Assembly: GCA_963575745.1 (NCBI GenBank)
Contig: CAUYUJ010016154.1
Location: forward strand, 176,530 to 240,529
Direction of reading: 5' to 3'
DNA from: Prorocentrum cordatum
Taxonomy: Eukaryota > Sar > Dinophyceae > Prorocentrales > Prorocentraceae
Length of the DNA stretch: 64,000 nucleotides
Shown: positions 34,994 through 62,935 of the stretch, in pieces
How positions within the stretch are numbered: the stretch's first letter is position 1
Layout: every line of letters begins with the position of its first letter
Program-made: the position numbers and the translations under genes
The notes under the pieces: model-generated
Databases searched by the model: none
Seen by the model: only the letters and a program-made list of their open reading frames with translations
Told to the model about the DNA's origin: nothing

Positions 34994-35156
34994 TAGGATG
35001 TTTGATAAAACTGATGGATCACCCCGCTTCCAGAACTGGCGCGGGCTTCCACTTGCGGTTCCCTTGCTCCTGCCCTTGCCTCCTTGCTTGCCCTCTCTCG
35101 CTCCTTCCCTTCTCTCCGCCGCTTGGCGGCTCAAGCCTTTTCGAAGGCCAAGCTGG
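34994..35156 (+). repeat. Element 2 split direct repeat A1 (5' end)
   Basis: 163 bp, almost identical to 62688-62850. Contains two adjacent stem-loops: CCGCC-GCTT-GGCGG and GCCTT-TTCG-AAGGC. The middle is pyrimidine-rich. Confidence 0.9.
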
Positions 35157-35684
35157 GGGTCGGCCTCAGTTGGCCTAAGGCCGGGCCCCGGGACCGGGGC
35201 CAGAAGACTTTCGGGACCTGGGGCCAGACCCGAAAGGGGGCGCCCGCGGCCGCATGATGCCGCGCCTGGCGCCGCGCGGCTGGGGGGCGGCGGCGACGCT
35301 GCCCGCGGGCGCGCAGCTGCGCAGCGGCGGGGGGCCCGGGCGCCGAGCGGCGCCGGCTCACGCCAGCCGCGGATCACCCGAGGGCGAGGGGGCAGTCGCC
35401 GCGGCGCGGCCGCCGCCCACCCCCGCCGAGCTGGCGGCCAGGCGCGTGCCCGCGGCGGCGCCGGCTCGATGCCAGGCGAGGGCGGCAGAGCGCGCGCGCG
35501 CGCCGGGGCCCGCCTGGAGGAGCTGCCCCGGGGCCTCGGCGCCGCCGCCAGCCGGCGGGCGCCACGGCCGCGCTGCAGCCCTGCTGCTGATCCTCGTGGT
35601 GACGCTTGAGACCGCAGACGCCGGGTCCAGGCTCTGGCGGACGGCTCCCGACCACGAGCCGAGTACAGGTACCCGACGTACTAC
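35157..35684 (+). other. Element 2 5' leader and start of coding region
   Basis: Very GC-rich. One frame (to 35688) has a hydrophobic AALLLILVVTLETADAG. Another frame, open from 35610, reads SRPRAEYRYPTYY up to the insertion point. Joined to base 47570 across the insertion, that second frame continues in register into the gag-like ORF. The true start codon is not clear. Confidence 0.5.
35677..35684 (+). repeat. Left target-site duplication of the hAT-like insertion
   Basis: CGTACTAC here and GGTACTAC at 47562-47569: 7 of 8 bases match. Eight-base duplications are the hAT hallmark. Confidence 0.6.
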
Positions 35685-35695
35685 ATGATGGCCGC

Positions 35696-35935
35696 GAACC
35701 GAACCGAGAACCGAGAACCGGGTCTGGAACCGAACCGGCCGAACCGAACCGGCCGGCCAAACCGAACCGGCCGAACCGAACCGGCCCGCTGTGCGAACCG
35801 AACCGGCCGAACCGAACCGGCGGAAACCGAACCGGCCGAACCGAACCGGCCAACCAGGCGGAACCGAACCGGCCGAACCGGACCGGACCGGCGGAACCGA
35901 ACCGTCCGAACCGGAGTCAGGACCCCAGGACCCGC
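35696..35935. repeat. Left subterminal GAACCGAACCGGCC array
   Basis: About 15 units, fairly regular, in the same orientation as the array at 47333-47550. Subterminal short repeats are usual transposase-binding sites in hAT elements; that role here is inference. Confidence 0.75.
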
Positions 35936-37033
35936 TCGAACCTTAAAATACCTCAGGACCCAGGACCTGAACCCAAGACCCCAGGACCCCCTGAATCCAG
36001 GATCCTCTTGGACTTCCCAGGACCCCAGGACCCGGGACCCCAGGGCCCCCAGGACCCATGAAGACACCCATGAAGACGAGCACCTGGCTGGCGGGCGCGC
36101 GCGGGGCGACGACGACGACGGCGGAGGAAGGCGACGACGACGGCGGAGGAAGGCGACGACGACGGCGGCGGAGGAAGGCGCCGACGACGACCCCCTGGGT
36201 CCGGACCCCCCCGGTCCGGACCCCCCCCGGTCCGGACCCTCCCCCGGTCCGGAACCCCCTGGGTCGTACCCCACCTGTTGTCCGGACCCCCCCGGTCCGG
36301 ACCCCCCCCGGTCCGGACCCTCCCCGGCTCGGACATTTCTGGGTCCCCGTCGCCCCTCCTCCTCTTCCGCCGCCTCCTCCTCCTTGCCCGCCGATGCGGG
36401 TTTCCCTGCGGAAGGGGCCGTCCGACGCCGCAGGCAGATCCACCCTCCAAGCACGCCGCCGCCGTCGCCGTCGCCGTCGCCGCCGCCTCCGGTGCCGTCG
36501 CCGCTGCGCCGTCCAAGCACGCCGCCGCCGCCGCCTCAGGCGCCGTCACCCCCGACGTTGCAATTTGTTGCAACGTGGAGCCCCAAAGCTCTCGACAATG
36601 TCCCCGGGGCCGGTTTTTCGCCCTCAACTGTTTTTTGACAATCCCGGGGCCGGGAGACGGCCTCCGGAGGCCGTCAACAACGATCGGTTGCAGTTTGTTT
36701 TCCGTCGCCCGGATTTGAGGCGGCCCCTACGTGCAGCACGAGCGCTTCTTCTGGCACGTGCGATTCCGGCCGCCGCCCTGCAAGGCTGACGGAGAGGAGG
36801 AGAACGGAGAAGGAAGGGTGACGGAGAAGGAAGGGTGACGGAAGCAGGACGGCGAAGGAGGAGGAAAACCTCCGCGGTGCGCCCGCTACGGGGCGCGCCC
36901 TCGAGCCCTCGGGTCCGAGGGGGGGGCTGCGGCCGCAGCCGCGCGGATGGCCTCGGAGATCAGCTGCTTCTTTTCGGCGGTATCCGCCGCCGTGCCTCTG
37001 GGCACGAATGGGCGTGTCCTCAAGTCCTGTGCC
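35936..37033. other. GC-rich repeats and unrecognised sequence
   Basis: CAGGACCC repeats (about 35925-36055), a GACGACGGCGG patch, a CCCCCCGGTCCGGA array (about 36200-36330) related to the spacer arrays further right, CCGCCGTCGC repeats, then unique sequence. No convincing gene. Confidence 0.5.
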
Positions 37034-38936
37034 TCAGCCTCTTAGTCCAGTCCTCACTCCTGCGTCTTGTAGGGGCCAGGGCCCGGAGAGCTTTCCAAGA
37101 CGGCCCAAGAGGCCTGCAAGACGGCCCAAGAGGCCCAAGGTGGCGGATGTGCCGAAGGCAACTAGATAGAGGTCTCGGAGCTCTCGGGGGACGCACACGT
37201 CCTTGTATCTCAGTCCGCGGGCGGCCAGCTCCTGCTCCAGCAGCCGTTGTCGCTCCACGGCAGAGCGACGCTTGAGGCTGGGCGCGTCTGTCTCCTCGCT
37301 GGCCGCCGCGCCGGCGGCCTCGCGCTCTCGCGGCCGCCGGCGGCCGCAGGGGGGCTCCTCGGGCGCTGGCGTGTTGGCCTCCGTGGGCGCGATCGCGCTC
37401 CGGCGCCGCCGCGCCGGGGTGGCGGGGGCAGTCGCCGCAAGCGGCCCCGGGGGCTGCCGCGATGCTGCCGCCGACGGCCCCGCCGAAGGCTGCCCGCGGG
37501 GCGCGGCACCGGCCGCTTTCGCCGACCCGGCGCCCGCGCCTGGAGGAGGAGGAGGAGGGAGGAAGGGAGGGCGGATGGAGGAGGGAGGAAGGGAGGAAGG
37601 GAGGAGGACGGGAGGAAGGGAGGGAGGAAGGGAGGAAGGGAGGAAGGCAGGGAGGAAGGGAGGAGGGGGCAGAAAAAAAAAAACAAAAAGAAAAAAAAAA
37701 ATAGAAAAAGAAAAAAAAAAAAAAAATAAAAAAAAAACAAAAAAAAAAAATAAAAGAAAAGAAAAAAAAAGAAAAAAAACAAAAAAAAAAAAAAAAAAAA
37801 AAAAACCAAATAAAAAAAGAAGGAATAAAAAAAAGGAATGCAAGGATAATTTGGGCGCCTTGCTGGCCGCCAGACCGCCCGCCGTGGGCGGCAGCCGCGC
37901 CTGTCTCTCCTGCTGCTGGCGCGGAAGGGCCGGCGGGCTGCTCCTCCTGTGCTGCTGGCGAAGCCGCCTCTTCAGCCGCTGGCATGGGGGCGTCAACAAC
38001 GGGCTGCGCGGCCTCCGTCTTCGCCGCGGTCGGCCGCGAGACGCCGCGGGGCCCAGGCGAGGCGCCGCCCGCCTCATCTGCTGCTGGCGCGGGCGCGGGC
38101 ACGGGCGCCGCTCGGCGCCCGAAAGGCAGGGGGGCCTTCGAGGCGCGCTTGAAGTCGCCAGCCGGCGAGGCGCCAACGGCCTGCGAAGCGCCGACAGCCT
38201 TGGCCGCGGCCTTGGCCGGCCTGGCCTCCGGCGCGGCAGCGGCGCCGCCGGCGGCCAGCGCGCGCCGCCAATCGCGCGGCAGCGGCCGCCGCCGCCAATC
38301 GCGCCCCTCGTCCGGTTCTGGCGAACTCCACGGCCAGAAGGCCTCCCCAGCCGCCGCTTCCGCCTCCTCGATCGTGATCGCGCTCGGCCGCCCCTTGCCT
38401 GCCGCGGCGGCCGCGGCCGCGTGGCCAGCAAGGAAACCGCGGCTCTTCCGCGCAGTTCTCTTGCGCGTCTGGGCCAACTTCGGAGCCGTCGGCGTGGGGT
38501 TGAACCGGTCCGGCTGCCTCCCTCGCCTGTGGCCACGACCGAGTGCTTCCGCCTCCTCCTCCTCCTCTTCCTCCTCTTCCTCCTCTGGCTCGGGCTGCTG
38601 CTGCTGCTCCTCCTCCTCCTCCTCCTCCTCCTCTTCCTCTTCCTCGCCCACTGGGACGTCGTCTGGCAGCTCGGCGACGTCGTCGACGTCGTCCGCCTCC
38701 TCCTCGTCCTCCTCGTCCTCGTGCTCCGCTGGCCCCCTGTACTCCGAAGCCATCTCCGCCTCCCACCGGGCGGTGCGCTGCTGCGATCTTACCTCCTTGT
38801 TGTTTCGCGGCTGTGCCAGCCTCTCCTCCTCCTCTTCCTCCTTCTGGCGCTCGCCCCTCTCCCAGCGGGCGTCCCCGGAGCGAGCGTCCCTCTCCTCTCG
38901 CCTCTCCGCGGCTCGCTGCGCTGAGAAGACGTCCAT
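37034..38936 (-). CDS. Acidic/basic protein gene with one GC-AG intron
   Basis: Two exons, 38936-37859 and 37539-37034, give 527 aa from the ATG at 38936. Order: basic/acidic start with AERREERDARS; an Asp/Glu-rich stretch interrupted by QQQQ; a basic stretch TRKRTARKSRGF; an Ala/Pro-rich middle; and after the intron a C-terminus with SAVERQRLLEQELAARGLRY, KDVCVPRELRDLYL and a Gly/Leu-rich tail. No known domain. A spliced-leader relic (38986-39007) lies 49 nt upstream of the ATG. The last 100 bases overlap TTGGG-type repeat, so the true C-terminus may be earlier. Its neighbour is the transposase array; a role with it is only a guess. Confidence 0.5.
37540..37858 (-). other. Inferred GC-AG intron of the acidic-protein gene
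   Basis: Minus strand: exon end AGCAAG, then GCGCCC; long T-rich and CCTTCC tract; then CTCCTCCAG before exon 2 (GCGCGGGCG). Splicing restores one frame: 1078 + 506 nt is a multiple of three. GC donors and AG-G acceptors are known in dinoflagellates. The poly(A/T) tract is at 37672-37805. Confidence 0.55.
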
Positions 38937-38985
38937 GGCCAGCGAGCCGTGGGGCAACTCTGCGAGCCAGGAGCGGCGCGCGGCT

Positions 38986-39585
38986 CTCGAACCAAAATGG
39001 CTACGGAACTTTCAGCCGTGGAGGTCCAGGCCCAGACCTCGGACGCCAGGCTTCAACCTTGAACGCCTGGGGGGGGCGAACCTGGCTGACCGCTGGAAGG
39101 CGGGCCCCTTTGGCGGCCCCCCCGCGCGAGGGCAGGGGGCCGCATCCGGGGTACCCGGGTCCCGAGGGACCACCCCAGCAGCAGTCAACCGCACGTCCCC
39201 CCGACCCAAGAGAGCCCCAAGAGGAGCCCACAGTCCGGACCCCCTGGGTCCGGACCCCCTGGGGTCGGACCCCCCGCTACCGAACCCTCCCCGTTCCGGA
39301 CCCCCCTGGGTCCGGACCCCCTGGGTCCGGACCCCCTGGGTCCGGACCCCCTGGGTCCGGACCCCCCTGGGTCCGGACCCCCCCGGTCCGGACCCCCTGG
39401 GTCCGGACCCCCTGGGTCCGGACCCCCTGGGTCCGGACCCCCCCGCCCCTGGTCCGGACCCCCCCCCCCGTCCGTCGTCACCCCCCCGTCCGTCGTCGTG
39501 GTCCCCCGTCCGTCGTCGTCGTGGTGCTCGTGGTCGTGGTCGTGGTCGTGGTCGCGGTCGCGGTCGCGGTCGCGGTCGCGCGGTT
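38986..39585 (-). repeat. Array spacer module, copy 1 (ends in a spliced-leader relic)
   Basis: Minus strand order: GCGACC/CCACGA repeats, CGGACCCAGGGGGTC array, about 230 bp of non-repetitive sequence, then the SL-like 22-mer at 39007-38986 (20 of 22 match; TTTTGGTTCGAG instead of TTTTGGCTCAAG). It separates hAT copy 1 from the acidic-protein gene. Confidence 0.85.
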
Positions 39586-41248
39586 GAATCGGATGTCCAA
39601 GTAACTAGCCATTGCGCATAAGTGGTAGCCGCTGGTCTCGAACATGTGCTTCCGGGCCATTCTCTCCAAGTCGGCGCCATAAAATCTGCAAAGCTTCTTA
39701 CCCAGGGCGCCCATGTTGGCCTTCGTCCACGTGGGGCCGACGGTGTACGAGCGGAGCTCCCTCGGCACCCTCAGCTCTGCAGTCGCCGGGTCGTACGCCC
39801 CGCGCGTCTGATGGAGAACAGGGAGAAACAAGGAAATGGTGCCCTTGTTGGCGTCCCCCTCGAGGGTGCGCGTCGCCGTCAGGAGCGGCCCCATGGCGCA
39901 ACAAATGTCGACGAGCTCCCTGACGCTGGGCTCGTCCAGGGGCTCTGGGGCAGAGCGCCTGGGGTGGAGGCCGCGAGTGAGGTTGTGAGCCCTGGCGTTC
40001 TTGATCAGGGAGACCCAGGACAACAGGGTGCCGGAGAAGCGAGTCTCGCCTTCTTGCGCGAATGCGCAAGTCGGCACGGGCGGGTTCTGGGACGCCGCGT
40101 CTGAAACCAAGGCGTCGTACTCGGAGCCGTTGCGGTGGTAGTATTTCACAATGGAACGAGCTTTTTTACACACCGGCTCCATGACCTTGCGAATGGCCAA
40201 CATTGCGGGGTCAGCTTTTCTCTTGCCGGCAGCAGCCCCCGCGGCGGCGGCGGCGGGTGCGGCCGCGGCGGCGGCGGGTGCGGCCGCGGCGGCGGCGGGT
40301 GCGGCCACGGCGGGGGCGGCCGCGGCCGCCGATGACGAAGACGTGGAGCTGGTCGAACCTGAACTCGATTCCGTTGAAGAAGAACTCGCCTTGGCGTGAC
40401 GTTTTTTCGGCCTTCTGCTGGGCGGTACGTCTCGTGCTTTCCCGCCAAACTGAAATCAGATGGCGCGTCCCGCACCCAAGGGCGTTCAAGCCCAAGTCGC
40501 GAATGCCCTTTCGCGGGGCCGCTTCGTGGTCGGACAGCCCGCAGACGATGTGGTCTGGCGTCAGGCCGGCAGCAGCCAGAGCTTTCTCCAACATTGACTT
40601 GTAAGAGGCAGCATTCTTACGGCCGACCATGTGGAACACCTCGAGGACGACCGAGTGGCGTTCGAATTCCAGGTCGCACCAGTCGACGATGATGGCGTTG
40701 AAATGTTTCGGACAGAGACCTTTTGTCTTCCAGCTGTCGTATCCGATAGCAAAACGACATCCTTTCTCTGCAGCTGCCCGCACAGCGGCCCTGGACTCCG
40801 CAACAATTCCGTCGATGGTGCGGCCGACCTCCTGCGTCATCACAGAGCGGCCGCCGAGCTGGCTCAAGCGGGTGATCCCGTCCCGGGCGTCGTCTGCAAC
40901 ACGCGCGGGAATCAGGTTTTTGATGACCATGATGACGGCCCACTCCCGGGTGAGGTCGTGGTCCACACGCCGCACGGCGCAACCCTCCTCGCGGGGGTGC
41001 TCGCGCAGACTCTCCGGGATCTCGTCGGCGTGAAAACGCCGCAGATGCCGCAGCATGGAGCCCGTGGAGCTCTCCTGCCACACGCACCCGTCATATTCCA
41101 TTGACGGCATGAAGCCTGAGTCCATGAGAGTTTTCACATTGAGCACAACAGGTTGTTCGTCCGGCCAGCAGATCTTGCAGAACCGATAGTTGCTGGACAG
41201 AGGACGTTTTTCGTGGAAGAACTGGTGCGCCCCTCGCGCCGAACGCAT
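39478..41248 (-). pseudogene. hAT transposase, copy 1 (frameshifted)
   Basis: Same protein as the intact middle copy. The first part, from ATG 41248, carries the BED-type finger (FCKICW ... HLRRFH), the first catalytic-type Asp (GYDSWKTKG) and CGLSDHEAAP. It goes out of frame near 40460-40410, where many small indels replace the segment after LGLNALGCG. The rest (40308-39478) is in another frame and keeps GETRFSGTLLSW and SYLDIRFN. Bases elsewhere are almost identical to copies 2 and 3. A spliced-leader relic (41333-41354) lies 84 nt upstream of the ATG. Confidence 0.8.
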
Positions 41249-41332
41249 CGCAGCCAAGGCGCAGGAAGGGGAGCTCTCACAGAAGCCAGGAAGCCGGGGA
41301 CAACTGCCGACACAGCTTCGACGACAGCGGCT

Positions 41333-42005
41333 CTCGAACCAAAATGGCTACGGAACTTTCAGCCGTGGAGGTCCAGACCCAGACCTCGGACGCCAGGCTT
41401 CAACCTTGAACGCCTGGGGGGGGCGAACCTGGTCTTGAGCTACGCTGGGAAAAATAGGCGGTGCCCCTTTGGGCGGCCCCCTCCGCGCGAGGGCAGGGGG
41501 CAGCCTCCGGGGTACCCGGTTTGGGCCCCGAGGGACCACCCCAGCGCAGTCACTTCCGCACGTCCCATCCGAGCCCCCCCCCCCCCCCCCCAAAAATAGA
41601 GCCACTCGACGCACGCCCACAGTCCGGACGCCGCCCCGTTTGCAGGGACCCCCGGGGTCCGGACCCCCTGGGTCCGGACCCCCCCGGTCTGGACCCCCTG
41701 GGGTCCGGACCCCCCGGTCCGGAACCCCCTGGGATCCGGACCGCGCTACTCACCCTTGTCGGGACACCCCTGGGTCCGGAAAACGCCCCCCGGTCCCGGG
41801 CATCACCCCTGGGTCCGGACGACATGCCACTTGGGGTCCGGACCCCCTGGGTCCGGACCCCCCCGCCCCTGGTCCGGACCCCCCCCCCCGTCCGTCGTCA
41901 CCCCCCCGTCCGTCGTCGTGGTCCCCCGTCCGTCGTCGTCGTGGTGCTCGTGGTCGTGGTCGTGGTCGTGGTCGCGGTCGCGGTCGCGGTCGCGGTCGCG
42001 CGGTT
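41333..42005 (-). repeat. Array spacer module, copy 2
   Basis: SL-like 22-mer at 41354-41333. The longest and most diverged of the four: its middle (about 41430-41830) differs, with a run of about 15 C near 41577-41591. Confidence 0.8.
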
Positions 42006-43658
42006 GAATCGGATGTCCAAGTAACTAGCCATTGCGCATAAGTGGTAGCCGCTGGTCTCGAACATGTGCTTCCGGGCCATTCTCTCCAAGTCGGCGCCAT
42101 AAAATCTGCAAAGCTTCTTACCCAGGGCGCCCATGTTGGCCTTCGTCCACGTGGGGCCGACGGTGTACGAGCGGAGCTCCCTCGGCACCCTCAGCTCTGC
42201 AGTCGCCGGGTCGTACGCCCCGCGCGTCTGATGGAGAACAGGGAGAAACAAGGAAATGGTGCCCTTGTTGGCGTCCCCCTCGAGGGTGCGCGTCGCCGTC
42301 AGGAGCGGCCCCATGGCACAACAAATGTCGACGAGCTCCCTGACGCTGGGCTCGTCCAGGGGCTCTGGGGCAGAGCGCCTGGGGTGGAGGCCGCGAGTGA
42401 GGTTGTGAGCCCTGGCGTTCTTGATCAGGGAGACCCAGGACAACAGGGTGCCGGAGAAGCGAGTCTCGCCTTCTTGCGCGAATGCGCAAGTCGGCACGGG
42501 CGGGTTCTGGGACGCCGCGTCTGAAACCAAGGCGTCGTACTCGGAGCCGTTGCGGTGGTAGTATTTCACAATGGAACGAGCTTTTTTACACACAGGCTCC
42601 ATGACCTTGCGAATGGCCAACATTGCGGGGTCAGCTTTTCTCTTGCCGGCAGCAGCCCCCGCGGCGGCGGCGGCGGGTGCGGCCGCGGCGGCGGCGGGTG
42701 CGGCCGCGGCGGCGGCGGGTGCGGCCACGGCGGGGGCGGCCGCGGCCGCCGATGACGAAGACGTGGAGCTGGTCGAACCTGAACTCGATTCCGTTGAAGA
42801 AGAACTCGCCTTGGCGTGACGTTTTTTCGGCCTCGCTGGCGGGACGCTGCGCTTTCCCGCCAACTGAATCAGATGGCACCCGCACCCAAGGGCGTTCAAG
42901 CCCAAGTCGCGAATGCCCTTTCGCGGGGCCGCTTCGTGGTCGGACAGCCCGCAGACGATGTGGTCTGGCGTCAGGCCGGCAGCAGCCAGAGCTTTCTCCA
43001 ACATTGACTTGTAAGAGGCAGCATTCTTACGGCCGACCATGTGGAACACCTCGAGGACGACCGAGTGGCGTTCGAATTCCAGGTCGCACCAGTCGACGAT
43101 GATGGCGTTGAAATGTTTCGGACAGAGACCTTTTGTCTTCCAGCTGTCGTATCCGATAGCAAAACGACATCCTTTCTCTGCAGCTGCCCGCACAGCGGCC
43201 CTGGACTCCGCAACAATTCCGTCGATGGTGCGGCCGACCTCCTGCGTCATCACAGAGCGGCCGCCGAGCTGGCTCAAGCGGGTGATCCCGTCCCGGGCGT
43301 CGTCTGCAACACGCACGGGAATCAGGTTTTTGATGACCATGATGACGGCCCACTCCCGGGTGAGGTCGTGGTCCACACGCCGCACGGCGCAACCCTCCTC
43401 GCGGGGGTGCTCGCGCAGACTCTCCGGGATCTCGTCGGCGTGAAAACGCCGCAGATGCCGCAGCATGGAGCCCGTGGAGCTCTCCTGCCACACGCACCCG
43501 TCATATTCCATTGACGGCATGAAGCCTGAGTCCATGAGAGTTTTCACATTGAGCACAACAGGTTGTTCGTCCGGCCAGCAGATCTTGCAGAACCGATAGT
43601 TGCTGGACAGAGGACGTTTTTCGTGGAAGAACTGGTGCGCCCCTCGCGCCGAACGCAT
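41898..43658 (-). CDS. hAT-family transposase, copy 2 (intact frame)
   Basis: 586 aa from ATG 43658. BED-type zinc finger with C24-x2-C27 and H68-x4-H73; first acidic residue in GYDSW (D171); second in CGLSDHEAAP (D240); CxxH motif C259-G-C-H262; an inserted Ala-rich/Ser-rich stretch (about 280-345); GETRFSGTLLSW and then LLTATRTLEGD and SLFLPVL, as in the hAT core; and ASYLDIRFN, matching the LDPRFK-type motif. It would cut and join hAT ends in the nucleus. The usual C-terminal hATC dimerisation domain is missing: after FNR the frame runs into Ala/Thr repeats of the spacer. Upstream lies a spliced-leader relic (43743-43764). Confidence 0.85.
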   Translation of the reverse strand: MRSARGAHQFFHEKRPLSSNYRFCKICWPDEQPVVLNVKTLMDSGFMPSMEYDGCVWQESSTGSMLRHLRRFHADEIPESLREHPREEGCAVRRVDHDLTREWAVIMVIKNLIPVRVADDARDGITRLSQLGGRSVMTQEVGRTIDGIVAESRAAVRAAAEKGCRFAIGYDSWKTKGLCPKHFNAIIVDWCDLEFERHSVVLEVFHMVGRKNAASYKSMLEKALAAAGLTPDHIVCGLSDHEAAPRKGIRDLGLNALGCGCHLIQLAGKRSVPPARPKKRHAKASSSSTESSSGSTSSTSSSSAAAAAPAVAAPAAAAAAPAAAAAAPAAAAAGAAAGKRKADPAMLAIRKVMEPVCKKARSIVKYYHRNGSEYDALVSDAASQNPPVPTCAFAQEGETRFSGTLLSWVSLIKNARAHNLTRGLHPRRSAPEPLDEPSVRELVDICCAMGPLLTATRTLEGDANKGTISLFLPVLHQTRGAYDPATAELRVPRELRSYTVGPTWTKANMGALGKKLCRFYGADLERMARKHMFETSGYHLCAMASYLDIRFNRATATATATATTTTTTTTSTTTTTDGGPRRRTGG

Positions 43659-43742
43659 CGCAGCCAAGGCGCAGGAAGGGGAGCTCTCACAGAAGCCAGG
43701 AAGCCGGGGACTACTGCCGACACAGCTTCGACGACAGCGGCT

Positions 43743-44327
43743 CTCGAACCAAAATGGCTACGGAACTTTCAGCCGTGGAGGTCCAGACCCAGACCTCGGA
43801 CGCCAGGCTTCAACCTTGAACGCCTGGGGGGGGCGAACCTGGCTGACCGCTGGAAGGCGGGCCCCTTTGGCGGCCCCCCCGCGCGAGGGCAGGGGGCCGC
43901 CTCCGGGGTACCCGGGTCCCGAGGGACCACCCCGGCAGCAGTCAACCGCACGTCCCCCCGACCCAAGAGAGCCCCAAGAGGAGCCCACAGTCCGGACCCC
44001 CTGGGTCCGGACCCCCTGGGTCCGGACCCTGGGTCCGGACCCCCCCGGTCCGCGACCCCCTGGGTCCGGACCCCCCCGGTCCGGACCACCCCGGTGGACC
44101 CCCCGGTCCGGACCCCCCCGGTCCGGACCCCCGGACCCCCTGGTCCGGACCCCCTGGGTCCGGACCCCCTGGGTCCGGACCCCCCCGCCCCTGGTCCGGA
44201 CCCCCCCCCCCGTCCGTCGTCACCCCCCCGTCCGTCGTCGTGGTCCCCCGTCCGTCGTCGTCGTGGTGCTCGTGGTCGTGGTCGTGGTCGTGGTCGCGGT
44301 CGCGGTCGCGGTCGCGGTCGCGCGGTT
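43743..44327 (-). repeat. Array spacer module, copy 3
   Basis: SL-like 22-mer at 43764-43743; otherwise as copy 1, with fewer CCGGACC units. Confidence 0.85.
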
Positions 44328-45979
44328 GAATCGGATGTCCAAGTAACTAGCCATTGCGCATAAGTGGTAGCCGCTGGTCTCGAACATGTGCTTCCGGGCC
44401 ATTCTCTCCAAGTCGGCGCCATAAAATCTGCAAAGCTTCTTACCCAGGGCGCCCATGTTGGCCTTCGTCCACGTGGGGCCGACGGTGTACGAGCGGAGCT
44501 CCCTCGGCACCCTCAGCTCTGCAGTCGCCGGGTCGTGCGCCCCGCGCGTCTGATGGAGAACAGGGAGAAACAAGGAAATGGTGCCCTTGTTGGCGTCCCC
44601 CTCGAGGGTGCGCGTCGCCGTCAGGAGCGGCCCCATGGCACAACAAATGTCGACGAGCTCCCTGACGCTGGGCTCGTCCAGGGGCTCTGGGGCAGAGCGC
44701 CTGGGGTGGAGGCCGCGAGTGAGGTTGCGAGCCCTGGCGTTCTTGATCAGGGAGACCCAGGACAACAGGGTGCCGGAGAAGCGAGTCTCGCCTTCTTGCG
44801 CGAATGCGCAAGTCGGCACGGGCGGGTTCTGGGACGCCGCGTCTGAAACCAAGGCGTCGTACTCGGAGCCGTTGCGGTGGTAGTATTTCACAATGGAACG
44901 AGCTTTTTACACACAGGCTCCATGACCTTGCGAATGGCCAACATTGCGGGGTCAGCTTTTCTCTTGCCGGCAGCAGCCCCCGCGGCGGCGGCGGCGGGTG
45001 CGGCCGCGGCGGCGGCGGGCGCGGCCGCGGCGGCGGCGGGTGCGGCCACGGCGGGGGCGGCCGCGGCCGCCGATGACGAAGACGTGGAGCTGGTCGAACC
45101 TGAACTCGATTCCGTTGAAGAAGAACTCGCCTTGGCGTGACGTTTTTTCGGCCTCGCTGGCGGGACGCTGCGCTTTCCCGCCAACTGAATCAGATGGCAC
45201 CCGCACCCAAGGGCGTTCAAGCCCAAGTCGCGAATGCCCTTTCGCGGGGCCGCTTCGTGGTCGGACAGCCCGCAGACGATGTGGTCTGGCGTCAGGCCGG
45301 CAGCAGCCAGAGCTTTCTCCAACATTGACTTGTAAGAGGCAGCATTCTTACGGCCGACCATGTGGAACACCTCGAGGACGACCGAGTGGCGTTCGAATTC
45401 CAGGTCGCACCAGTCGACGATGATGGCGTTGAAATGTTTCGGACAGAGACCTTTTGTCTTCCAGCTGTCGTATCCGATAGCAAAACGACATCCTTTCTCT
45501 GCAGCTGCCCGCACAGCGGCCCTGGACTCCGCAACAATTCCGTCGATGGTGCGGCCGACCTCCTGCGTCATCACAGAGCGGCCGCCGAGCTGGCTCAAGC
45601 GGGTGATCCCGTCCCGGGCGTCGTCTGCAACACGCGCGGGAATCAGGTTTTTGATGACCATGATGACGGCCCACTCCCGGGTGAGGTCGTGGTCCACACG
45701 CCGCACGGCGCAACCCTCCTCGCGGGGGTGCTCGCGCAGACTCTCCGGGATCTCGTCGGCGTGAAAACGCCGCAGATGCCGCAGCATGGAGCCCGTGGAG
45801 CTCTCCTGCCACACGCACCCGTCATATTCCATTGACGGCATGAAGCCTGAGTCCATGAGAGTTTTCACATTGAGCACAACAGGTTGTTCGTCCGGCCAGC
45901 AGATCTTGCAGAACCGATAGTTGCTGGACAGAGGACGTTTTTCGTGGAAGAACTGGTGCGCCCCTCGCGCCGAACGCAT
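44220..45979 (-). pseudogene. hAT transposase, copy 3 (single-base frameshift)
   Basis: Nearly identical to copy 2. The frame from ATG 45979 runs through finger, both Asp motifs, CGCH and the Ala-rich part, then breaks near 44905-44909 where a T run has five bases instead of the six in copies 1 and 2, giving KKLVPL and a stop. The rest continues in the next frame to 44220. A sequencing error in the homopolymer could explain it. A spliced-leader relic (46064-46085) lies 84 nt upstream. Confidence 0.85.
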
Positions 45980-46063
45980 CGCAGCCAAGGCGCAGGAAGG
46001 GGAGCTCTCACAGAAGCCAGGAAGCCGGGGACTACTGCCGACACAGCTTCGACGACAGCGGCT

Positions 46064-46601
46064 CTCGAACCAAAATGGCTACGGAACTTTCAGCCGTGGA
46101 GGTCCAGACCCAGACCTCGGACGCCAGGCTTCAACCTTGAACGCCTGGGGGGGGCGAACCTGGCTGACCGCTGGAAGGCGGGCCCCTTTGGCGGCCCCCC
46201 CGCGCGAGGGCAGGGGGCCGCCTCCGGGGTACCCGGGTCCCGAGGGACCACCCCAGCAGCAGTCAACCGCACGTCCCCCCGACCCAAGAGAGCCCCAAGA
46301 GGAGCCCACAGTCCGGACCCCCTGGGTCCGGACCCCCTGGGTCCGGACCCCCTGGGTCCGGACCCCCTGGGTCCGGACCCCCCCGGTGGGTCCGGACCCC
46401 CCCGGTCCGGACCCCCTGGGTCCGGACCCCCTGGGTCCGGACCCCCTGGGTCCGGACCCCCCCGCCCCTGGTCCGGACCCCCCCCCCCGTCCGTCGTCAC
46501 CCCCCCGTCCGTCGTCGTGGTCCCCCGTCCGTCGTCGTCGTGGTGCTCGTCGTGGTCGTGGTCGTGGTCGCGGTCGCGGTCGCGGTCGCGGTCGCGCGGT
46601 T
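46064..46601 (-). repeat. Array spacer module, copy 4
   Basis: SL-like 22-mer at 46085-46064. It ends at the same base (CGCGCGGTT) as the others but is preceded by a different gene, not a transposase. Confidence 0.85.
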
Positions 46602-46935
46602 ACCTTCGCGCCCTCGCGAGGCCTCCTTGGAGACATGCAATTCTGCGGCCCAGGCCGCGACGCGCGAAGCGCGATTATCTTCTTGCGTTTTCTTCATCGT
46701 TTGAGACACCGGTAGTTGGCCTTCGAGAAGCTCCTCGTCGCCACGGCTGGACGCAGCTCGGAAAACTGGTGCGTCTGGACCCCGGGAGGGGTCCGAAGAC
46801 CGAGTTTGAGCAGATTTGGAGTTCCAGTGTCTCAACTCGCCCTTCTCCGATCTTGCCGGGCGCTTTTGGTGGCGGGTGTGCAAGCGCCGAGAGCTCTGCC
46901 AGCAGTCTAGGCCGCCGGTCTGCAGAGACAGCCTC
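46602..46935 (-). pseudogene. Fragment of an unrecognised gene upstream of the array
   Basis: A minus-strand frame reads GLDCWQSSRRLHTRHQKR, SRGDEELLEGQLPVSQTMKK and HVSKEASRGREG, then enters spacer copy 4 exactly where the transposase copies do. It looks coding, but I know no family. At the junction the sequence AAGGTAACC resembles a splice donor. The 5' part is lost in CTC-rich and Gly/Ala repeat sequence. Confidence 0.35.
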
Positions 46936-47112
46936 AACGAGAGAAGGAGGAGGAGGAGGAGGAGGACAGGAGGAGGAGGAGGCGGAGGAGGAGGAGGTGC
47001 AGCAGCGGCGGCAGCGGCCAGCGGCGGCCAGCGGCCAGCGGCGGCCAGCGGCGGCACCTCGGCCGTTGCAGCGGCCCCGCTGGGGCAGCGCGCGAGACGC
47101 CGAACGGGCCGG

Positions 47113-47158
<46 letters not shown>

Positions 47159-47332
47159 CTCCTCCTCCTCCTCATCCTCCTTCTTCTCCTCCTCCTCCTC
47201 CTCCTCCTCTTCCTCCTCCTCCTCCTCCCTCGCCCCCACTGTCCCCATCCCCGTCGGGGCTGCCGATCGGGACGGCCTGGAATCGAAGCGAATCGAAATC
47301 GGGCTGACTGAAATCGCCTCTGCATGGATGCG
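46936..47332. repeat. GAG tract, GCGGCCAGCG repeat and CTC-rich tract
   Basis: GAGGAGG run (about 46945-47000), GCGGCCAGCGGC repeats (about 47005-47060), CCTCGT and CTCCTC runs (about 47113-47235). Confidence 0.85.
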
Positions 47333-47550
47333 AAACCGGCCGAACCAACCGAACCGAACCGGCCGAACCGGACCGGTCGGAACACATAAAACCGAACCGG
47401 TAGAACCGAACCGGCCGAACCGAACCGGTCGAACCGAACCGGTCTACGACAAAGAACCGAACCGGTCGAACCGAACCGGTTTGCGACGCGAACCGGAACC
47501 GGTCGAACCGAACCGGTCGCACATCGAACCGAACCGGACCGGACCGAACC
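47333..47550. repeat. Right subterminal GAACCGAACCGGTC array
   Basis: Same basic unit as at 35696-35935 with GGTC instead of GGCC, in direct orientation. Confidence 0.75.
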
Positions 47551-47561
47551 GCGGCTTTCAT

Positions 47562-47569
47562 GGTACTAC
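47562..47569 (+). repeat. Right target-site duplication of the hAT-like insertion
   Basis: GGTACTAC; see 35677-35684. Confidence 0.6.
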
Positions 47570-48124
47570 GACGACGCGTCGGACGTGGACATGAAGCCGT
47601 TCTGGCTCGACGGCACCGTGGCCCCCTCCTTGCACGAGGACGCGCTGCCGATCAGGACGCACCCCGCGAGCGAGCACACTGCTCCCGCTGGAGGTGCTGG
47701 AGGGGGTCCGCCGCGCGAGCGCTTCGCGCCGCGGGCCGACCCGCCTCCCCAGGACCCGACCCACAGCCCCCCCGACCCCTCCGACTCGGACCCGTCGTCC
47801 TGGATCAGGGGTTGGGGTCTTTTCGGCATCAGTTGGAAGGACATCGGCAACCGCACGCACTGGTTCGCCGAGGGGATGGGCGGGGGCACTTTCAGGGCTG
47901 TCGGGAGCTTCAGGTCCGCCTTTTCGACTCGTGAGGCAGGAGGTTGGCTGAGCTCAGACGGCGGCTGGGTGCTGTACATGGCCGACCAGATGGGCCTCTA
48001 CCTGTTCGGCTCCGCGTGGCCGCTAGTCGCCGGGCTCGCGGCGATCCTCTCCGGCACTGGCGTGATCGCGCTCCTGGCCCACAGCCTGAGGACGCTCTTT
48101 GCTCCCTGCAGCTGGGCGGCTTGA
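47570..48124 (+). pseudogene. Element 2 gag-like polyprotein, N-terminal part
   Basis: Continues, in register, the frame that ends at 35684 before the insertion (DDASDVDMKPFWLDGTV). Proline-rich middle, then a probable membrane segment at about 48004-48090 (PLVAGLAAILSGTGVIALLA). It stops at TGA 48122-48124, but the same frame is open for another 5.6 kb after that codon. So the TGA is either a mutation within one long ORF or a recoded stop. Function unknown. Confidence 0.55.
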
Positions 48125-51100
48125 ACATGCGGTCTGGTGTTGGCATGCTGCCCCTGCCCGAGGCGCAAGACGCCTGGCGAGGCCAAGATTGATAAGCTGG
48201 TCCCGCCGGCGGCCCCGCCCCTCACCGACGTGGTATGGCACGGCCCAGCCGTGGGTGCAGACCCGACCACTGATTGGTACCGCAAGAGCATCAAGGAGGG
48301 CAGGGGCTCCAAGCGTGGCCAGAACGACCTCCTGATCAAGGTCGACTACCGAGTCGCGCGGCTCAAGCTTAACATGAAGTCCCCGGAGCGCATCAACCGC
48401 CAAGGACTGTGGGTCGAGTACGACTCCGTGAAGGGCGCGAGCGACAAGGGCTTCCGGCGCGAGCTCGAGCAGCGCGACCCGCGCTGGCTTCACCTGTGCC
48501 GCTCCGCCGGCTGCACTGGGCGCAAGGGGCGCGAGAACGAGCTGCACTGCAAGGAGTACGCCGCCCTCGACAACGAGGCCATCGTGGACCCCGGCGACTA
48601 CTCGAAGTTCACACCATGCAGGATCTTCGTCTGGCTCTGGCGGTGGTTGGGCCTGACCTACAAGCTGCTGCTGTACGTCATCTCATGGCTTTCGTGCTGC
48701 GGGGCGTGCATCTGCCGCCGGCGACGCCGCCGTCGCAAGACTGGCGATGCGGAGCCTGGCGCGCAGGGGTCCGTGGCGAGGCTGCTCGACCAGGAGTCCG
48801 AGTCCGAGGTGGACGTCGAGGACAACCCCTGCGAGGCGGTGAAGGTGGGGCTCATGATCAAAGGCAAGATGCGCCCACTGGCGCCTGAAGGATGTCGCGA
48901 CGCCGCTCGCGGTGAGCCGACCGTGCTGTTGGTGGAGGACGGCCGAGCTTCGGACCTCAAGCCCTCCAGTGAGGGGAATGCGACGGCTTGCCTATGCGAG
49001 CACCACAAGCAGATCTACAAGGTCCTACGCTATGGCGAGAAGTGCTCTCAGGTGACGTGCTTCCGCGAAGCGGTGGGCATGGCCTCAGGGGTTCCGCTCT
49101 GCCTGCAGCACCTCGGCGGCGACGCTGCCAAAGCGATCAACGACACTTCCACAGGTGGCAGGTTCTTCGCAGGTTTGCGGCGTCGGACCCAGAGGAGCCC
49201 TGCCCCGCGGAGCCGCGCACCAGAGCGGGCCGCTGCCGCTCCAGCCCGGAGCCGCACTCCAGAGCGCTCCACCCCGGCGGTCCCTGCCCCGGAGGCACCC
49301 ACCAGCCCAGGCGATCCTGTCCCCGCGCCTGTGGGACCACCGAGGATGCTGTTTGAGGCGCCGCCGGTCCCAAAGTTCCCCAAGTCGCCCACGCCGCCGC
49401 CCATGCCGCTCGGGCAGCATTTCATCGTTCGGGCGAGGGTGCAATGGCCAGAAGGGGCGCAGTGGATGATTTTCAGGGGAAGGGCAGCCGACGCCGCCGC
49501 GGCCAGCACGGTCGCCGAGTACCTTGACGGCGCGATGGCCCTCGAGGTGGAGGATCCGACAGGCACCGTCATCCGCTTTCTGGTGAAGCCTGACGGCGTC
49601 ATCCGTGCACCTGCTCCGGGGCCCTCGGAGCGCCTGCCCGCAGGGTTCATCGAGGAGATGCTCCACCACGCGCCCTTGGGTTGCGAGGAGCTCGGCATCA
49701 GCGTCTTGGCGACCAGCATACCCGAGAAAGTCTGGCACAAGTTGGCTGCGTGGCACGGGCTCCCCGTGGGCGGCCGCGCCGGGCCACTCAGCGAGGCCCG
49801 CTGGCAGCTGCTCCGCGAGAAGGTGGCCAGCTTAGTCCGGTGGCACCCTGAAGGGGGAGTGGCACCCAGCCCGAGCTTCGAGGCGAGAGCTACCGAGGCA
49901 GACGCCAAGTTGCGCAGCCACTGGCAACGGCTGGACCGTAGCAGCTCGCCCAAGCCGCCAGCTGGGTCTGCCCGGAGAGGTTCGCGCTCCCCGTCAGCCG
50001 AGGGCGGGCGCGCAGCTAGCTCCGAGGCACCCGCATCGGGAGAGAGCCATCAGGAGGACGACGGCGGGGATATGATGGCATGCTACTTGGAGGAGAAGGC
50101 CCGGGGATCGAGCGACGCAGCGGCGGTGCAGAGTGTGGCCGCCGGCTTCGGCGAGGAGGCCCACCAGGTGCTCGCCGACCTCATCCGCTACGCCCAGCAC
50201 CTCAGGCAGCAGACGACCGAACCTGAGGAGCTCGCACGGCTCGATGGGCACATCGGCAGCTGGGAGGCGCTGCAGCAGGTGCCTTCACGGCCTCAGACCC
50301 CGGAGGCAGCGCCGAGCAGCCTGCAGGGTCTGCTCAAGCTCCCGCCCGAGCGCCACCGCTCGCAAGGGCTGCCGGCCGCCCAGGCCGATAGCGCGCCCTC
50401 GATCGAGACGCGGCCGCCCCGCCCGCCAGCAGCGCCTGCACCGGCGCTCGCACTTGGGCTGCGGGACACCGGCCCCCTGCCGGCCGCGGCTGGGCTCGCC
50501 CCAGTCGTTCGCCCACAAGCTCCAAACGTTGGGGCCCTATTCCGCTACGACCATCACATTAGCGACTTGGGTTTACTCCCAGGTCTGGCTGCAGCTCCGG
50601 CACGCTATGCCGCGGGAGCCCCAGAGGAAGGCGGAGGAAGCGACCCGTTTGGCCTCATGCAGCCCGGAGCACCCTTGGATGCGAACACCGCGCGGATGCT
50701 GCACGCCCTGGAAGGGGTCGCTAGCGCCCGCCGAGGCGACAAGGCGGCCCAGCGCGGGACGGTGGCGGCATTGGGAAGAGCGGAGGAGTTGGACGTCTAC
50801 TTGGCGCGCGGGTGCGGCCAGCTGACGGTGGAGGTCTGCGACGAGGTCCTTGGGCGCGAGCTGTTCTATGCTCTGCGCCGGACCTGCGAGCAGAACAAAG
50901 CCCTGATGCTCGCGGTCGAAGCGCCCACGACGGTGTCCAATCGGATCGCGATGGCCTGCGCCTCGCTCAGCTTCGGCGGCAGCAGCCTGGACAACCTGGC
51001 TCCGCGGTCGGCCTCAGCGGCGGACTTCCCGACATACAAGACGGTCGCGTTCGACAAGTACAGCGCGCCGCGCGACACCAAGCTGGAGCCCAGGCCCAGG

Positions 51101-53749: not shown

Positions 53750-54939
53750 GAGCTCTGGTGCACGCGGCTGGGGCCCGGGCCCTCGCCATAGACATGTGCG
53801 AGTGGGGGCTCGCACCCCCGGACGAGCCCCAGTATCGGTACCAGAAGCGAACCTGGTGGCTGGTATCACTCGGGCTCTACCCTTACGCTCTGATCTTGGC
53901 CAGGCGGTGCTCGGGCAAGAACACGCACCGCACGTTGGAGGGCGGCCTGCCGTACGACTTGACGGACGCCCAGGTGGAAGCCTACAACCTCGATACACGC
54001 ACGCGGCTCAGCAAGGCCGAGGCAAGCGAGCTGATCAACCTCAGCACCAAGTTGGGTGAGGCCAGCGGGTGCTATGGCCTTGATGAGGACGGCGTCATAG
54101 TCAGGCTGCCCCCGGACGACAAGCTGCTCCGCGTGAACCAGCTCATCGCGCGAGCCGCCCCAAACAACTTCCGCTGGGCGCGGGTGGACTTCCGCACCAA
54201 GCGGCACTACTCCGCTCTGTCCGAGAACCAGTGGGCCCTCTACTTCGGAAAGACCCCCGAGGGCGAGCTCCGACCCATCATCATCGGCACGCAAGCCCCG
54301 CCCAACCTGGAGGGTGGAGGGCGCGTCCCCAGCGGCACCCCCCAGCTCAGTGCTGCAGTGAAGGGGGAGCTGGGAAGCGCCGGCTTCGGGCTGGGGCTGC
54401 GGGGCATGCGGAGGACCCAGCACGCGGGGCAGTATGCGCCGCGGATGTGCGCTGCCTGGGCAGCCGTGCTGAAAGCAGCGGCTGCCGGCACCGCTCCCGA
54501 GAAGCTGGAACAGCAGATTGCGGCGATGGACGCCGAGGCGCGGGCTTTGGAGGATAAGTTGGAAAGCAAGGTGGCGCGGGCCGGGCGTATTGACGCCCTG
54601 GAACAAGACCCCCCTCCTTCATCACGCCCGTCAGCCTGTGCGGCAGAGGGCGCCGTGACCGAGGACGGGACCATCAGCGAGCATGGCGAGAAGTGCGGCA
54701 GCTTGAAGAGGAGCGCCATCACTAGTAAAGCAGAGGAGGATCGGAACGGGTGCAGTTGCAGCTACGACGACAGCTGGCTTGAGGCCCCCCTCGGCGTCTC
54801 GGACTGCCTACCCCGCCCGAAACTGAGAAGCTCAACGGAGGTCAGGGTTGACGAGGGCTCAAAAGGCCCCCGTAGGGGCGGTCGTTCAAAGGACGGCTCC
54901 CAGAGAGAGACGTGGCGATGGAGGACGGCGGAAGCTTAA
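53716..54939 (+). pseudogene. Element 2 first methyltransferase-like domain, C-terminal part
   Basis: Continues in another frame after the shift: RYPKLRDRPCMRAL, then AIDMCEWGLAP, YQKRTWWLVSLGLYP and LARRC. This parallels the ENP...SRVW / YDSCRFG...KPG / RRC series of element 1. After about 53950 comes a stretch with RWARVDFRTKRHYSALSENQ and a coiled part (EKLEQQIAAMDAEARALEDK), then low-similarity sequence to the stop. Role unknown. Confidence 0.5.
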
Positions 54940-55777
54940 AGGGCGAACGCCGAAGTGAGGACGAGGTGGAGGTGGGGGCCGACGGCGAGCCGATCGCGAT
55001 CGAGTGCGGTGGCGACGAGAAGCGGGGCGGCAAGCGGGGCGGCAAGCGAGGAGGCTGGAAGCGCAACAAAGCGCGCAAGCGTGAGGCGCGCGAAGCTGCC
55101 GCGCGAGGTGGAGGTGGACCTGGCGGAGGTGGTGATGGTGACGACGACGGGGGGAGAGCCCCGACGAGGATGAGGAGGAGGAGAACCGCCGCCAGAAGAA
55201 GGCGAGGGAAGCCGAGGATGAAGCATCCCGAGCCAGCCCAGTGCGAGTCTTTGTCCCGCAGAAGGGCGACCAGTGGGCGCTGCTCAAGGGGGGCCCGTTC
55301 GAGGCAGGAGAAGTCAAAGCGAAGCTGAGGGTCTCAGACGCGCTGTCCGGGTGCATCTTCGACGAGGACCAGCTGTACCTCTTCGAGTATACGGAGGACG
55401 AGGACACGGCAGGCGCACATGGGCCACCTCTCGACGACGAGGAGTCGGTGCGCCCTGGAGAGAAGCTGCTGCTGTGGGCCACGCTGAAGCCGCCGAAGGA
55501 GTGGACCAGCTGGAGCCCCCGGTGGGATCGGGATCAGCAGCCAGCACCTGGCACCACAGCCCAAGCCGGCCAGCGGAGGGTCACAGCCAGGGTTGCTGAC
55601 CGGGCTTCAGCCGCAGCGGCAGCTGCAGGATCAGGCGGGGCCGCAGCAAGCTCAGCAGCCAGCAGCAGCCGCATGCCAGCACCGACGTTCAGCGAGGTGG
55701 CCGCAGCAGCAGGAGGCGAAAGAGCGAGCTCAGTCCCACCGCCCAGCGGGGGACTTCGAGGAGCTCAGGCGCCCTGA
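54918..55777 (+). pseudogene. Element 2 charged linker ORF before RT
   Basis: From ATG 54918 a frame reads MEDGGSLKGERRSEDEVEV then Gly/Lys/Arg-rich (KRGGKRGGKRGGWKRNKARK). At a run of six G (about 55148-55153) it shifts; the next frame goes on with PDEDEEEENRRQKKAREAED and VFVPQKGDQWALLKGGPFEAGE, then LYLFEYTEDED. A further shift near 55775 joins a Gln/Ala-rich coil to the RT ORF. No domain recognised. Confidence 0.45.
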
Positions 55778-55782
55778 GACGA

Positions 55783-58161: not shown

Positions 58162-58706
58162 GCATCCACCTTTGAAGCAAGCTTCATTTCCTGTTTGGGG
58201 CCGCGCGAGCGCCTGGCACTACCAGGGGCCGCCGCCCGGACGAGGTGGACAGGGGGCGATGCTACCACGACGACCATCGGCAGCATAGACTAAGGGCGCG
58301 CGGTGGCCGGCAGCAAAGCGGCGCCACCCCACTACATGGCCGTGGATGCCGCCCCGCTCCTCCGCCAGCTGGAGGATGTGCTGAGCCACCCGGGGGCCGA
58401 GAAGGACTGGGCCATAGCTATCGTCGAGCTGCTCGCTTTCGTGGCCTTGGCCGCCGCAAGGGGCGACGAGTGGCAGGGCGAGCTGGTCTTCTACGTTACT
58501 GACAACATGAACGTGCGGTCGTGGATTTCCTAGAGGCGGCCCAAGCATCCACTCGCGAGGCACCTCGTCCGCCTCATTCAGCGCCTAGAGGCTTGCCACG
58601 GGTTCAGCACTACCGCACTGTACATCCGCACCTACCATAACGACATCGCGGACTGGCTGTCGCGAGAGGAAGCCAAGAAGGTCCACTCCGAGCTCCTGCG
58701 CAAGGG
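58162..58706 (+). pseudogene. RNase H (element 2), with in-frame stops
   Basis: Same frame as the RT. The four acidic positions can be seen: Asp in WTGGDATTTTIGSID (58258-58260), Glu in AIVELLAFVAL, Asp in YVTDNMNVRSW (58501-58503) and Asp in HNDIADWLSRE. It degrades the RNA strand during cDNA synthesis. Broken by TGA 58159-58161, TAA 58291-58293 and TAG 58531-58533. The last motif, NDIADWLSR, is typical of RNase H of DIRS-type elements. Confidence 0.7.
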
Positions 58707-62018: not shown

Positions 62019-62487
62019 GGTGCGAGGCTGCCGCGGGCCAATGACCGAGCGGGCAGCGGAGATCCGCCGCCGGCACCCGCCGCGCGAGCGGCTGCGCGGC
62101 GCCGGCTGAGTTCAGCCTGGCGCTCGCGTTCAGTTCTGCGCTTGCGAGCAGCTGGGCGCGGAGCGGCAGCAGCTGTGTGCCCGAGGGCAATGGCGCCGCG
62201 CCAGCCTGGCAGCCGGCAGTGCCGTCAGGGGGGACGGCGGTGGCGGCTTTGAGGGAAGCGCCGGCGGCTGGCCCAGCCAGGGCTGCCGCGCGTGGCGCAT
62301 GAAGAACCACCGTGGGCGCCGGCGGCATGCCGCCCTGCGCCTGCGGACCTACCTTGCTGGACAGAAGTGGCAGCGTGCCGTGGATGCCAGGACTGTTGAG
62401 TTCCACGCCGTGAGGACCGTGAGGACCGGCGACTACGCAATCCGCTACGGCCAGTTCGGCGTGGTGGTGCATTCACAGGAGGAGGTT
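62019..62487 (+). other. Element 2 3' non-coding region
   Basis: GC-rich, between the last ORF and B1. I see no gene. Confidence 0.5.
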
Positions 62488-62687
62488 GGCGGCGTGGCCC
62501 GCGACGCGTGGCCCAAGACAGGCGCCGGCGCGTCATGCGCCAGGCGCCCGAAGAGCAGCACGGCTCCCTGGCAAAAAGGGTGTGCGCTCATCGTCATCGT
62601 CATCTGAGCGCCACTTCCTCCTCTTGAGCCTCACACCCACTAGGCTCAATATGTTTTTAGTTTACCAGTGCTGCTTGAAGGGATATC
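62488..62687 (+). repeat. Element 2 split direct repeat B1
   Basis: 200 bp, almost identical to 62936-63135 (offset 448). Directly abuts A2. Confidence 0.9.
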
Positions 62688-62850: not shown

Positions 62851-62935
62851 CCCACCCTGGGGGCCCTCTCGAGGCCCCCTTTCCCGCCCTGTTCTGGATT
62901 TTTTTGGCACCGCCGAGGCGCTAGGGTGCCTCGGC

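What the first reader, a model, noticed from the sequence alone, without database searches (positions are those of the whole stretch)
35685..47561. An 11.9-kb hAT-like insertion lies inside a giant YR retrotransposon, with target duplication and restored frame
Flanks read CGTACTAC (35677) and GGTACTAC (47562), 7/8 matching. The ends are about 12-bp imperfect inverted repeats (10/12). The cargo encodes hAT transposases, and hAT elements make 8-bp duplications. If the insert and one duplication are removed, the frame ending TAC TAC at 35684 runs straight into GAC GAC at 47570 and on into the gag-like ORF. The two lines of evidence are independent. A hAT element with three transposase genes and other genes would be very unusual.
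Basis: partly seen in the sequence, partly recalled or inferred. Interest (0 to 1): 0.9.

Follow-up and report, generated by a model that had tools for sequence, protein, structure and literature searches.

The report
Swollen hAT transposon inside a retrotransposon
In a marine dinoflagellate, an 11.9-kb cut-and-paste transposon, swollen by three tandem copies of a truncated transposase gene, has jumped into a retrotransposon, and each of its genes sits behind a fossil spliced leader, hinting that its genes once passed through messenger RNA.

Summary
The insertion is real. The genome is Prorocentrum cordatum. In 11 of 11 fetched other copies of the host retrotransposon the site is empty. Of 45 other matches to the insert's left border, 28 begin at the same base. 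Two details change: the insert is 35684-47562, and its target duplication is exactly 6 bp (GTACTA), not 8 with a mismatch; 15 of 15 two-ended copies, window included, show exact 6-bp duplications. The restored frame is weak evidence. The transposase is hAT-like by fold (9 of 9 PDB hits at E<=0.001 are Hermes) and by a relative with PF05699, but it ends before the catalytic glutamate and dimerisation domain. The 'three transposase genes' are a tandem array of one 2.3-2.4-kb unit; only the middle gene is open throughout. So it is a hAT6-like, probably non-autonomous element, locally expanded, whose genes probably passed once through trans-spliced mRNA: a new variant of a known kind.

The parts
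34994..63135 (+). host element (element 2): retroelement with A-B-A-B terminal repeats, about 16.3 kb without the insert
   Evidence: A 34994-35156 = 62688-62850 (99.4% of 163); B 62488-62687 = 62936-63135 (98.5% of 200); 39 other genomic places match its gag start
35678..35683 (+). left copy of the 6-bp target duplication GTACTA
47563..47568 (+). right copy of the 6-bp target duplication GTACTA
   Evidence: a single site in 11 of 11 fetched relatives, GTACTA itself in 9 of 11
35684..47562 (.). the inserted hAT-like element, 11,879 bp
35684..35696 (+). left terminal inverted repeat CATGATGGCCGCG
   Evidence: present in 20 of 20 fetched copies
47550..47562 (+). right terminal inverted repeat CGCGGCTTTCATG
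   Evidence: found within one mismatch in 14 of 20 fetched copies
35727..35872 (+). left subterminal repeats, 7 x GAACCGAACCGG
47351..47537 (+). right subterminal repeats, 8 x GAACCGAACCGG, same strand as the left ones
37020..39011 (-). ORF D, acidic low-complexity frame (first ATG near 38936), no Pfam family
38980..39585 (-). module M: relict leader, spacer of GTCCGGACCCCC-like repeats and (CGCGAC)n; repeated at 41327, 43737 and 46058
39007..41353 (-). unit 1 (2347 bp): transposase copy with 7 gap openings against unit 2
41354..43763 (-). unit 2 (2410 bp): transposase copy open throughout (P0001, ORF 41898-43757)
43764..46084 (-). unit 3 (2321 bp): transposase copy with one gap against unit 2
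46058..46601 (-). partial fourth repeat: module M joined to unique right-arm sequence
38986..39006 (-). relict spliced leader before ORF D, 19/21
41333..41353 (-). relict spliced leader before transposase 1, 19/21
43743..43763 (-). relict spliced leader before transposase 2, 19/21
46064..46084 (-). relict spliced leader before transposase 3, 19/21

Best explanation
A non-autonomous, hAT6-like DNA transposon of Prorocentrum cordatum inserted at GTACTA in the gag region of a DIRS-type (A-B-A-B) retrotransposon and duplicated 6 bp. SHOWN: the termini, the 6-bp duplications, the empty sites, a hAT-fold transposase, and deletion derivatives of 0.9 to 5.2 kb. SHOWN: this copy is enlarged by three tandem copies of a unit made of a relict dinoflagellate spliced leader, a transposase gene lacking its C-terminus, and a spacer. 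INFERRED: a full-length transposase made elsewhere in the genome moves it by cut and paste, probably recognising the short inverted ends and the subterminal GAACCGAACCGG repeats. INFERRED: the array grew by unequal recombination at the simple repeat (CGCGAC)n, which lies both at the truncated 3' end of the transposase gene and at the upstream edge of the leader-plus-spacer module; the same event may have removed the C-terminal coding part. INFERRED: the leader shows that the transposase gene, or the upstream module shared by all four genes, passed once through a trans-spliced mRNA and was put back as cDNA, as proposed for many dinoflagellate genes.
For: 28 of 45 other left-border matches begin at 35684. 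15 of 15 two-ended copies, window included, have exact 6-bp duplications, all different. 11 of 11 fetched relatives of the host element lack the insert. Fold search: 9 of 9 PDB hits at E<=0.001 are Hermes. Relative P0003 (36% identical) has PF05699 at 6.1e-14. The C-termini of P0003, P0005 and P0008 have no tblastn match at E<=1 in the window or in the loci fetched by then. Unit 2 is gap-free and 99.6-99.9% identical to the transposase stretches of L014, L015, L017 and L018. Four leader relicts, none in 100 shuffles. Array junctions lie at the simple repeat.
Against: The structure model of the window's protein is of low confidence (mean pLDDT 53, pTM 0.43) and the Hermes matches have low TM-scores (0.36-0.49) and large rmsd. 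Pfam gives no hAT family for the window's own protein even at E<=10. No full-length transposase copy was seen, because the genome search for it did not complete. No poly-A tail or other mark of reverse transcription beyond the leader was found at the transposase units. None of the 14 fetched two-ended copies is as long as this one.
Confidence: 0.75

Rival explanations
1. One reading: a standard 8-bp-duplicating hAT element that carries three transposase genes and several different cargo genes.
For: 7 of 8 bases match if the borders are drawn one base further in.
Against: 15 of 15 two-ended copies show exactly 6 bp and none 8; the transposase genes are tandem copies of one unit.
Confidence: 0.03
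2. The tandem array is an assembly artefact: one transposase unit was written three times.
For: Among the 14 fetched two-ended copies the longest is 5,217 bp, with one transposase unit; another copy, L009, has a run of 5,000 Ns in that region.
Against: The three units differ by 2.4-5.7% with their own gaps and spacers; the insert holds no N, the window's only N run being at 27454-27553.
Confidence: 0.1
3. The leader-like sequence came with a captured piece of host upstream DNA (a gene fragment taken up by the element), and the transposase gene itself never passed through mRNA.
For: The leader, the spacer and 5 nt downstream are shared by the transposase units and by the unrelated ORF D, so the module behaves as a separate upstream piece.
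Against: The leader stands at the 5' start of every one of the four leftward genes; genomic leaders in dinoflagellates are explained by reintegrated mRNA (PMC7245778, PMC3229502, passages).
Confidence: 0.35
4. The insert is an introner, an intron-making transposon that is spliced out of the host transcript.
For: Introner-type introns are reported as enriched in this species (PMC10666404, passages).
Against: The right border reads CATG then GTACTA, with no AG acceptor at the border; the insert carries its own genes on the other strand and has relatives of 0.9-5.2 kb.
Confidence: 0.02

Closest known systems
hAT6 group of hAT DNA transposons (Kapitonov and Jurka 2007, seen only as cited in PMC12730594, passages)
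   Same: hAT-type transposase, 6-bp target duplications, short terminal inverted repeats
   Different: not compared by sequence or tree; this copy has a C-terminally truncated, tandemly repeated transposase behind relict leaders
Hermes (hAT transposase of known structure)
   Same: fold of the catalytic core and helical part; 9 of 9 PDB hits at E<=0.001
   Different: 10-12% identity, low TM-scores; the window's protein lacks the C-terminal part; Hermes makes 8-bp duplications (recalled)
hAT proteins P0003, P0005 and P0008 and Polarella glacialis proteins P0004, P0006 and P0007
   Same: 36-37% identity to P0001, same motif order to YLDPRF
   Different: P0003, P0005 and P0008 go on to the dimerisation domain PF05699; the window's genes do not
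SymbioDIRS retrotransposons of dinoflagellates (PMC5890265, passages), for the host element
   Same: A-coding-B-A-B terminal arrangement
   Different: Pfam recognises no domain in the ORFs tested
Recycled dinoflagellate mRNAs with relict spliced leaders (PMC3229502 and PMC7245778, passages)
   Same: a genomic leader-like sequence at the 5' start of genes
   Different: here inside a DNA transposon and multiplied with its transposase gene; the relict is not cut at the internal AG as is usual in the reports

Membership tests
hAT superfamily | transposase with a hAT-type RNase H core | tested here: met
   (Hermes), with low model confidence; homologous to P0003
hAT superfamily | C-terminal dimerisation domain (PF05699) and catalytic glutamate | tested here: not met
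   absent from the window's protein; present in relatives P0003, P0005 and P0008. The copy is best called a non-autonomous derivative
hAT superfamily | short terminal inverted repeats | tested here: met
   13 bp, 11 of 13
hAT superfamily (canonical) | 8-bp target duplication | tested here: not met
   0 of 15 two-ended copies
hAT6 group | 6-bp target duplication | tested here: met
   15 of 15 two-ended copies
hAT6 group | position in a hAT tree with hAT6 references | not tested
   no reference sequences were at hand
DIRS / tyrosine-recombinase retrotransposon (host element) | split direct repeats A-B-A-B | tested here: met
DIRS / tyrosine-recombinase retrotransposon (host element) | reverse transcriptase and tyrosine recombinase domains | tested here: inconclusive
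   motifs seen by eye; no Pfam or PDB sequence match; PMC5890265 says Symbiodinium DIRS reverse transcriptases align poorly to Pfam
Introner (intron-making DNA transposon) | splice sites at the element ends | tested here: not met
   no AG at the right border; no RNA data

The most novel reading that the evidence does not exclude
A cut-and-paste DNA transposon whose transposase gene has itself been through the RNA cycle: trans-spliced mRNA, reverse transcription and return into the element. Thereafter the leader-plus-spacer module became a movable upstream unit multiplied with the gene, so that dinoflagellate mRNA recycling shapes a class II element.
Probability: 0.4. Interest if true: 0.6.

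Novelty: new variant of a known kind. Interest (0 to 1): 0.45.

Why it matters
It gives a clean nested insertion with empty sites (a hAT copy inside a retroelement whose terminal repeats are 98.5-99.4% alike) and a set of nearly identical hAT derivatives in a dinoflagellate. The relict leader before the transposase links two processes usually treated apart, mRNA recycling and DNA transposition. If confirmed in relatives, one could ask how often class II elements of trans-splicing organisms have their genes rewritten through RNA. The array also shows how an element can swell to 12 kb without taking up foreign cargo.

Tried and rejected
8-bp duplication: rejected, 0 of 15. Restored frame as independent proof: rejected as weak. 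Several different transposases: rejected, tandem copies. Introner: rejected on the right border. Chance leader match: rejected. Pfam on 9 insert ORFs, out of the longer list, gave nothing at E<=0.001, and only non-hAT, sub-cut-off hits for P0001 at E<=10. Viral contigs gave no relative of element 2's long ORF. Rfam: no match in the window at the gathering scores. Literature: the listings show no title on a hAT transposase behind a relict leader; I read passages of six papers (PMC12730594, PMC10666404, PMC7245778, PMC5890265, PMC11453091, PMC3229502) and none in full, so this is absence in these searches only. A genome-wide search for a full-length transposase, for other arrays or from the right end did not complete; these remain open. 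One search failed with a script error and was replaced.
Full report
OBSERVATION. The first genome search to be answered placed the window in a 4.13-Gb draft genome of 21,875 contigs. A protein search returned a partial product of Prorocentrum cordatum, P0002, from a contig of 202,969 bp, the length of contig C17652 of this genome. The published assembly of that species is 4.15 Gb in 22,724 scaffolds (PMC10666404, passages).

BOUNDARIES. A 601-base query over the left border gave 46 matches, one of them the window itself (40 of 1197 candidates of the first look were scored, so this is a lower bound). Of the 45 others, 28 begin exactly at window base 35684 and 34 within 35680-35684. I fetched 20 of these places with 10 kb each. 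All 20 show the left end CATGATGGCCGC. A right end with at most one mismatch to CGCGGCTTTCATG was found in 14; the other 6 (L009, L020, L021, L022, L026, L027) had none in the stretch, L009 having a run of 5,000 Ns. In these 14 and in the window, the 6 bases before the left end equal the 6 bases after the right end, and none has 7 or 8. The 15 duplications are all different; 12 of 15 end in G. So the element is 35684-47562 and its duplication is GTACTA.

EMPTY SITES. A query with the start of the host's gag region gave 40 matches, one being the window (40 of 254 candidates scored). Of the 39 others, 11 were returned as loci with flanks (L032-L042; L033 and L034 are neighbours on one contig); the other 28 were not looked at. 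All 11 align across the junction of the window's joined flanks with no insert: 10 in one alignment over at least 1,290 of the 1,292 joined bases, and L037 in two pieces whose break lies upstream of the junction. The local alignment shows a single site in all 11, GTACTA in 9 and a one-base variant in L033 and L034; L032 and L036 match the window for 15 bp before and 50 bp after the junction. Sequences within two mismatches of the element's ends occur in L032 and L042, but more than 1 kb from the site. A relative protein of the same species, P0009 (a predicted, partial product), also runs through the site: the clear part of its left-flank match ends at residue 794 and its right-flank match starts at 802. 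This settles that the insert is an insertion.

FRAME. The upstream coding sequence shared with P0009 is read in another frame in this copy. The frame therefore adds little.

WHAT THE INSERT ENCODES. Between 38980 and 46601 lies a tandem array: three units of 2347, 2410 and 2321 bp and a partial fourth. The units are 94.3, 97.6 and 94.5% alike in pairs. Each holds, on the minus strand, a gene whose product P0001 (unit 2, 619 residues stop to stop) has no Pfam family above cut-off. It is 36% identical to P0003, an 811-residue protein from a JGI source with the hAT dimerisation domain at E 6.1e-14, and similar to Polarella glacialis proteins. A model of P0001 (mean pLDDT 53, pTM 0.43) was compared with the PDB: all 9 chains with E<=0.001 are Hermes, the hAT transposase, with TM-scores of 0.36-0.49. 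The likeness of P0001 to its relatives ends at the YLDxRF motif; a simple repeat follows, and none of the C-termini of P0003, P0005 and P0008 is found at E<=1 in the window or in the loci fetched by then. So all three genes lack the last part. Unit 2 is open and gap-free against L014, L015, L017 and L018 over 1451-1579 bases at 99.6-99.9%; unit 1 has 7 gap openings against unit 2 and unit 3 has one. The changes in these comparisons are too few to show selection.

THE LEADER. At the start of each unit, and before the left-hand ORF D, the minus strand reads CCGTAGCCATTTTGGTTCGAG, 19 of 21 to the dinoflagellate spliced leader. At up to three mismatches the window has five matches, these four and an exact one at 18755-18775; 100 shuffles give none. 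The four copies count as one ancestral event, since they were multiplied with the unit. Leader relicts of the same form stand in the fetched copies L012, L014, L016, L017 and L018, and one with a further change in L015. The leader sequence, and the reading of genomic leaders as traces of mRNA put back into the genome, are in PMC7245778 and PMC3229502 (passages). The likeness between the four positions begins 5 nt downstream of the leader and continues upstream through a spacer of GTCCGGACCCCC-like repeats to a simple repeat (CGCGAC)n. At 39585, 42005 and 44327 that repeat joins the truncated transposase end; at 46601 it joins unique right-arm sequence.

MECHANISM. I infer that the array arose by unequal recombination between the simple repeat at the upstream edge of the module and a similar low-complexity stretch in the transposase's 3' part (relatives encode a GRGRGR stretch there). 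This would both multiply the unit and remove the C-terminus. Deletion derivatives of 0.9 to 5.2 kb, three of them exactly 1,288 bp long, occur with perfect duplications, and the transposase stretches are 99.6-99.9% alike, so a working transposase probably acted recently on these ends; I infer that it came from a full-length copy that I did not see. The ends carry 7 and 8 copies of GAACCGAACCGG, all on the same strand, none in the interior and none elsewhere in the window; in the 14 two-ended copies the first and last 300 bp hold 5-7 and 4-8 copies, again on one strand, with none in the interior. They are likely binding sites.

HOST ELEMENT. The A-B-A-B repeats match the arrangement of dinoflagellate DIRS elements (PMC5890265, passages). 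Pfam and PDB sequence searches did not recognise its reverse transcriptase or recombinase; I identify them by eye only.

NOVELTY. Nested transposons, 6-bp hAT elements, tandem gene arrays and relict leaders are each known. The combination, a hAT transposase array behind relict leaders in a DNA transposon, did not appear in the listings. I call it a new variant of a known kind.

Noticed in passing
18755-18775 (minus strand): An exact 21-base match to the dinoflagellate spliced leader, followed by GTGGATCTGACTGCAG. Either a leader RNA gene or another recycled mRNA; Rfam reported nothing in the window.
   Followed up: no
L023, L024, L025: Three copies of exactly 1,288 bp with their own interior and different duplications: a young MITE-like subfamily of the same element.
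   Followed up: partly
L021 and L030 (contig C5335): A left end matching 100% over 247 bases and the continuation of the same query about 18 kb further on: perhaps another copy of this element that was itself interrupted by an insertion.
   Followed up: partly
L033, L034 (contig C13214): Two copies of the host element's gag start lie about 1.4 kb apart on one contig, a tandem piece of element 2.
   Followed up: no
48125-53749, residues reading LRTREIFAGTGRWTQAMKNAG and APPC: Seen by eye, a DNA-methyltransferase-like stretch in element 2's long ORF; DIRS elements of Symbiodinium carry methyltransferases (PMC5890265, passages). Pfam does not recognise it.
   Followed up: no
37673-37834: A 162-base A-rich tract on the plus strand inside ORF D, which D's own frame reads as phenylalanine runs; its origin is unexplained.
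   Followed up: no
35684-47562 and 14 fetched copies: 12 of 15 target duplications end in G next to the left end, a possible target preference; both subterminal repeat blocks point the same way.
   Followed up: partly
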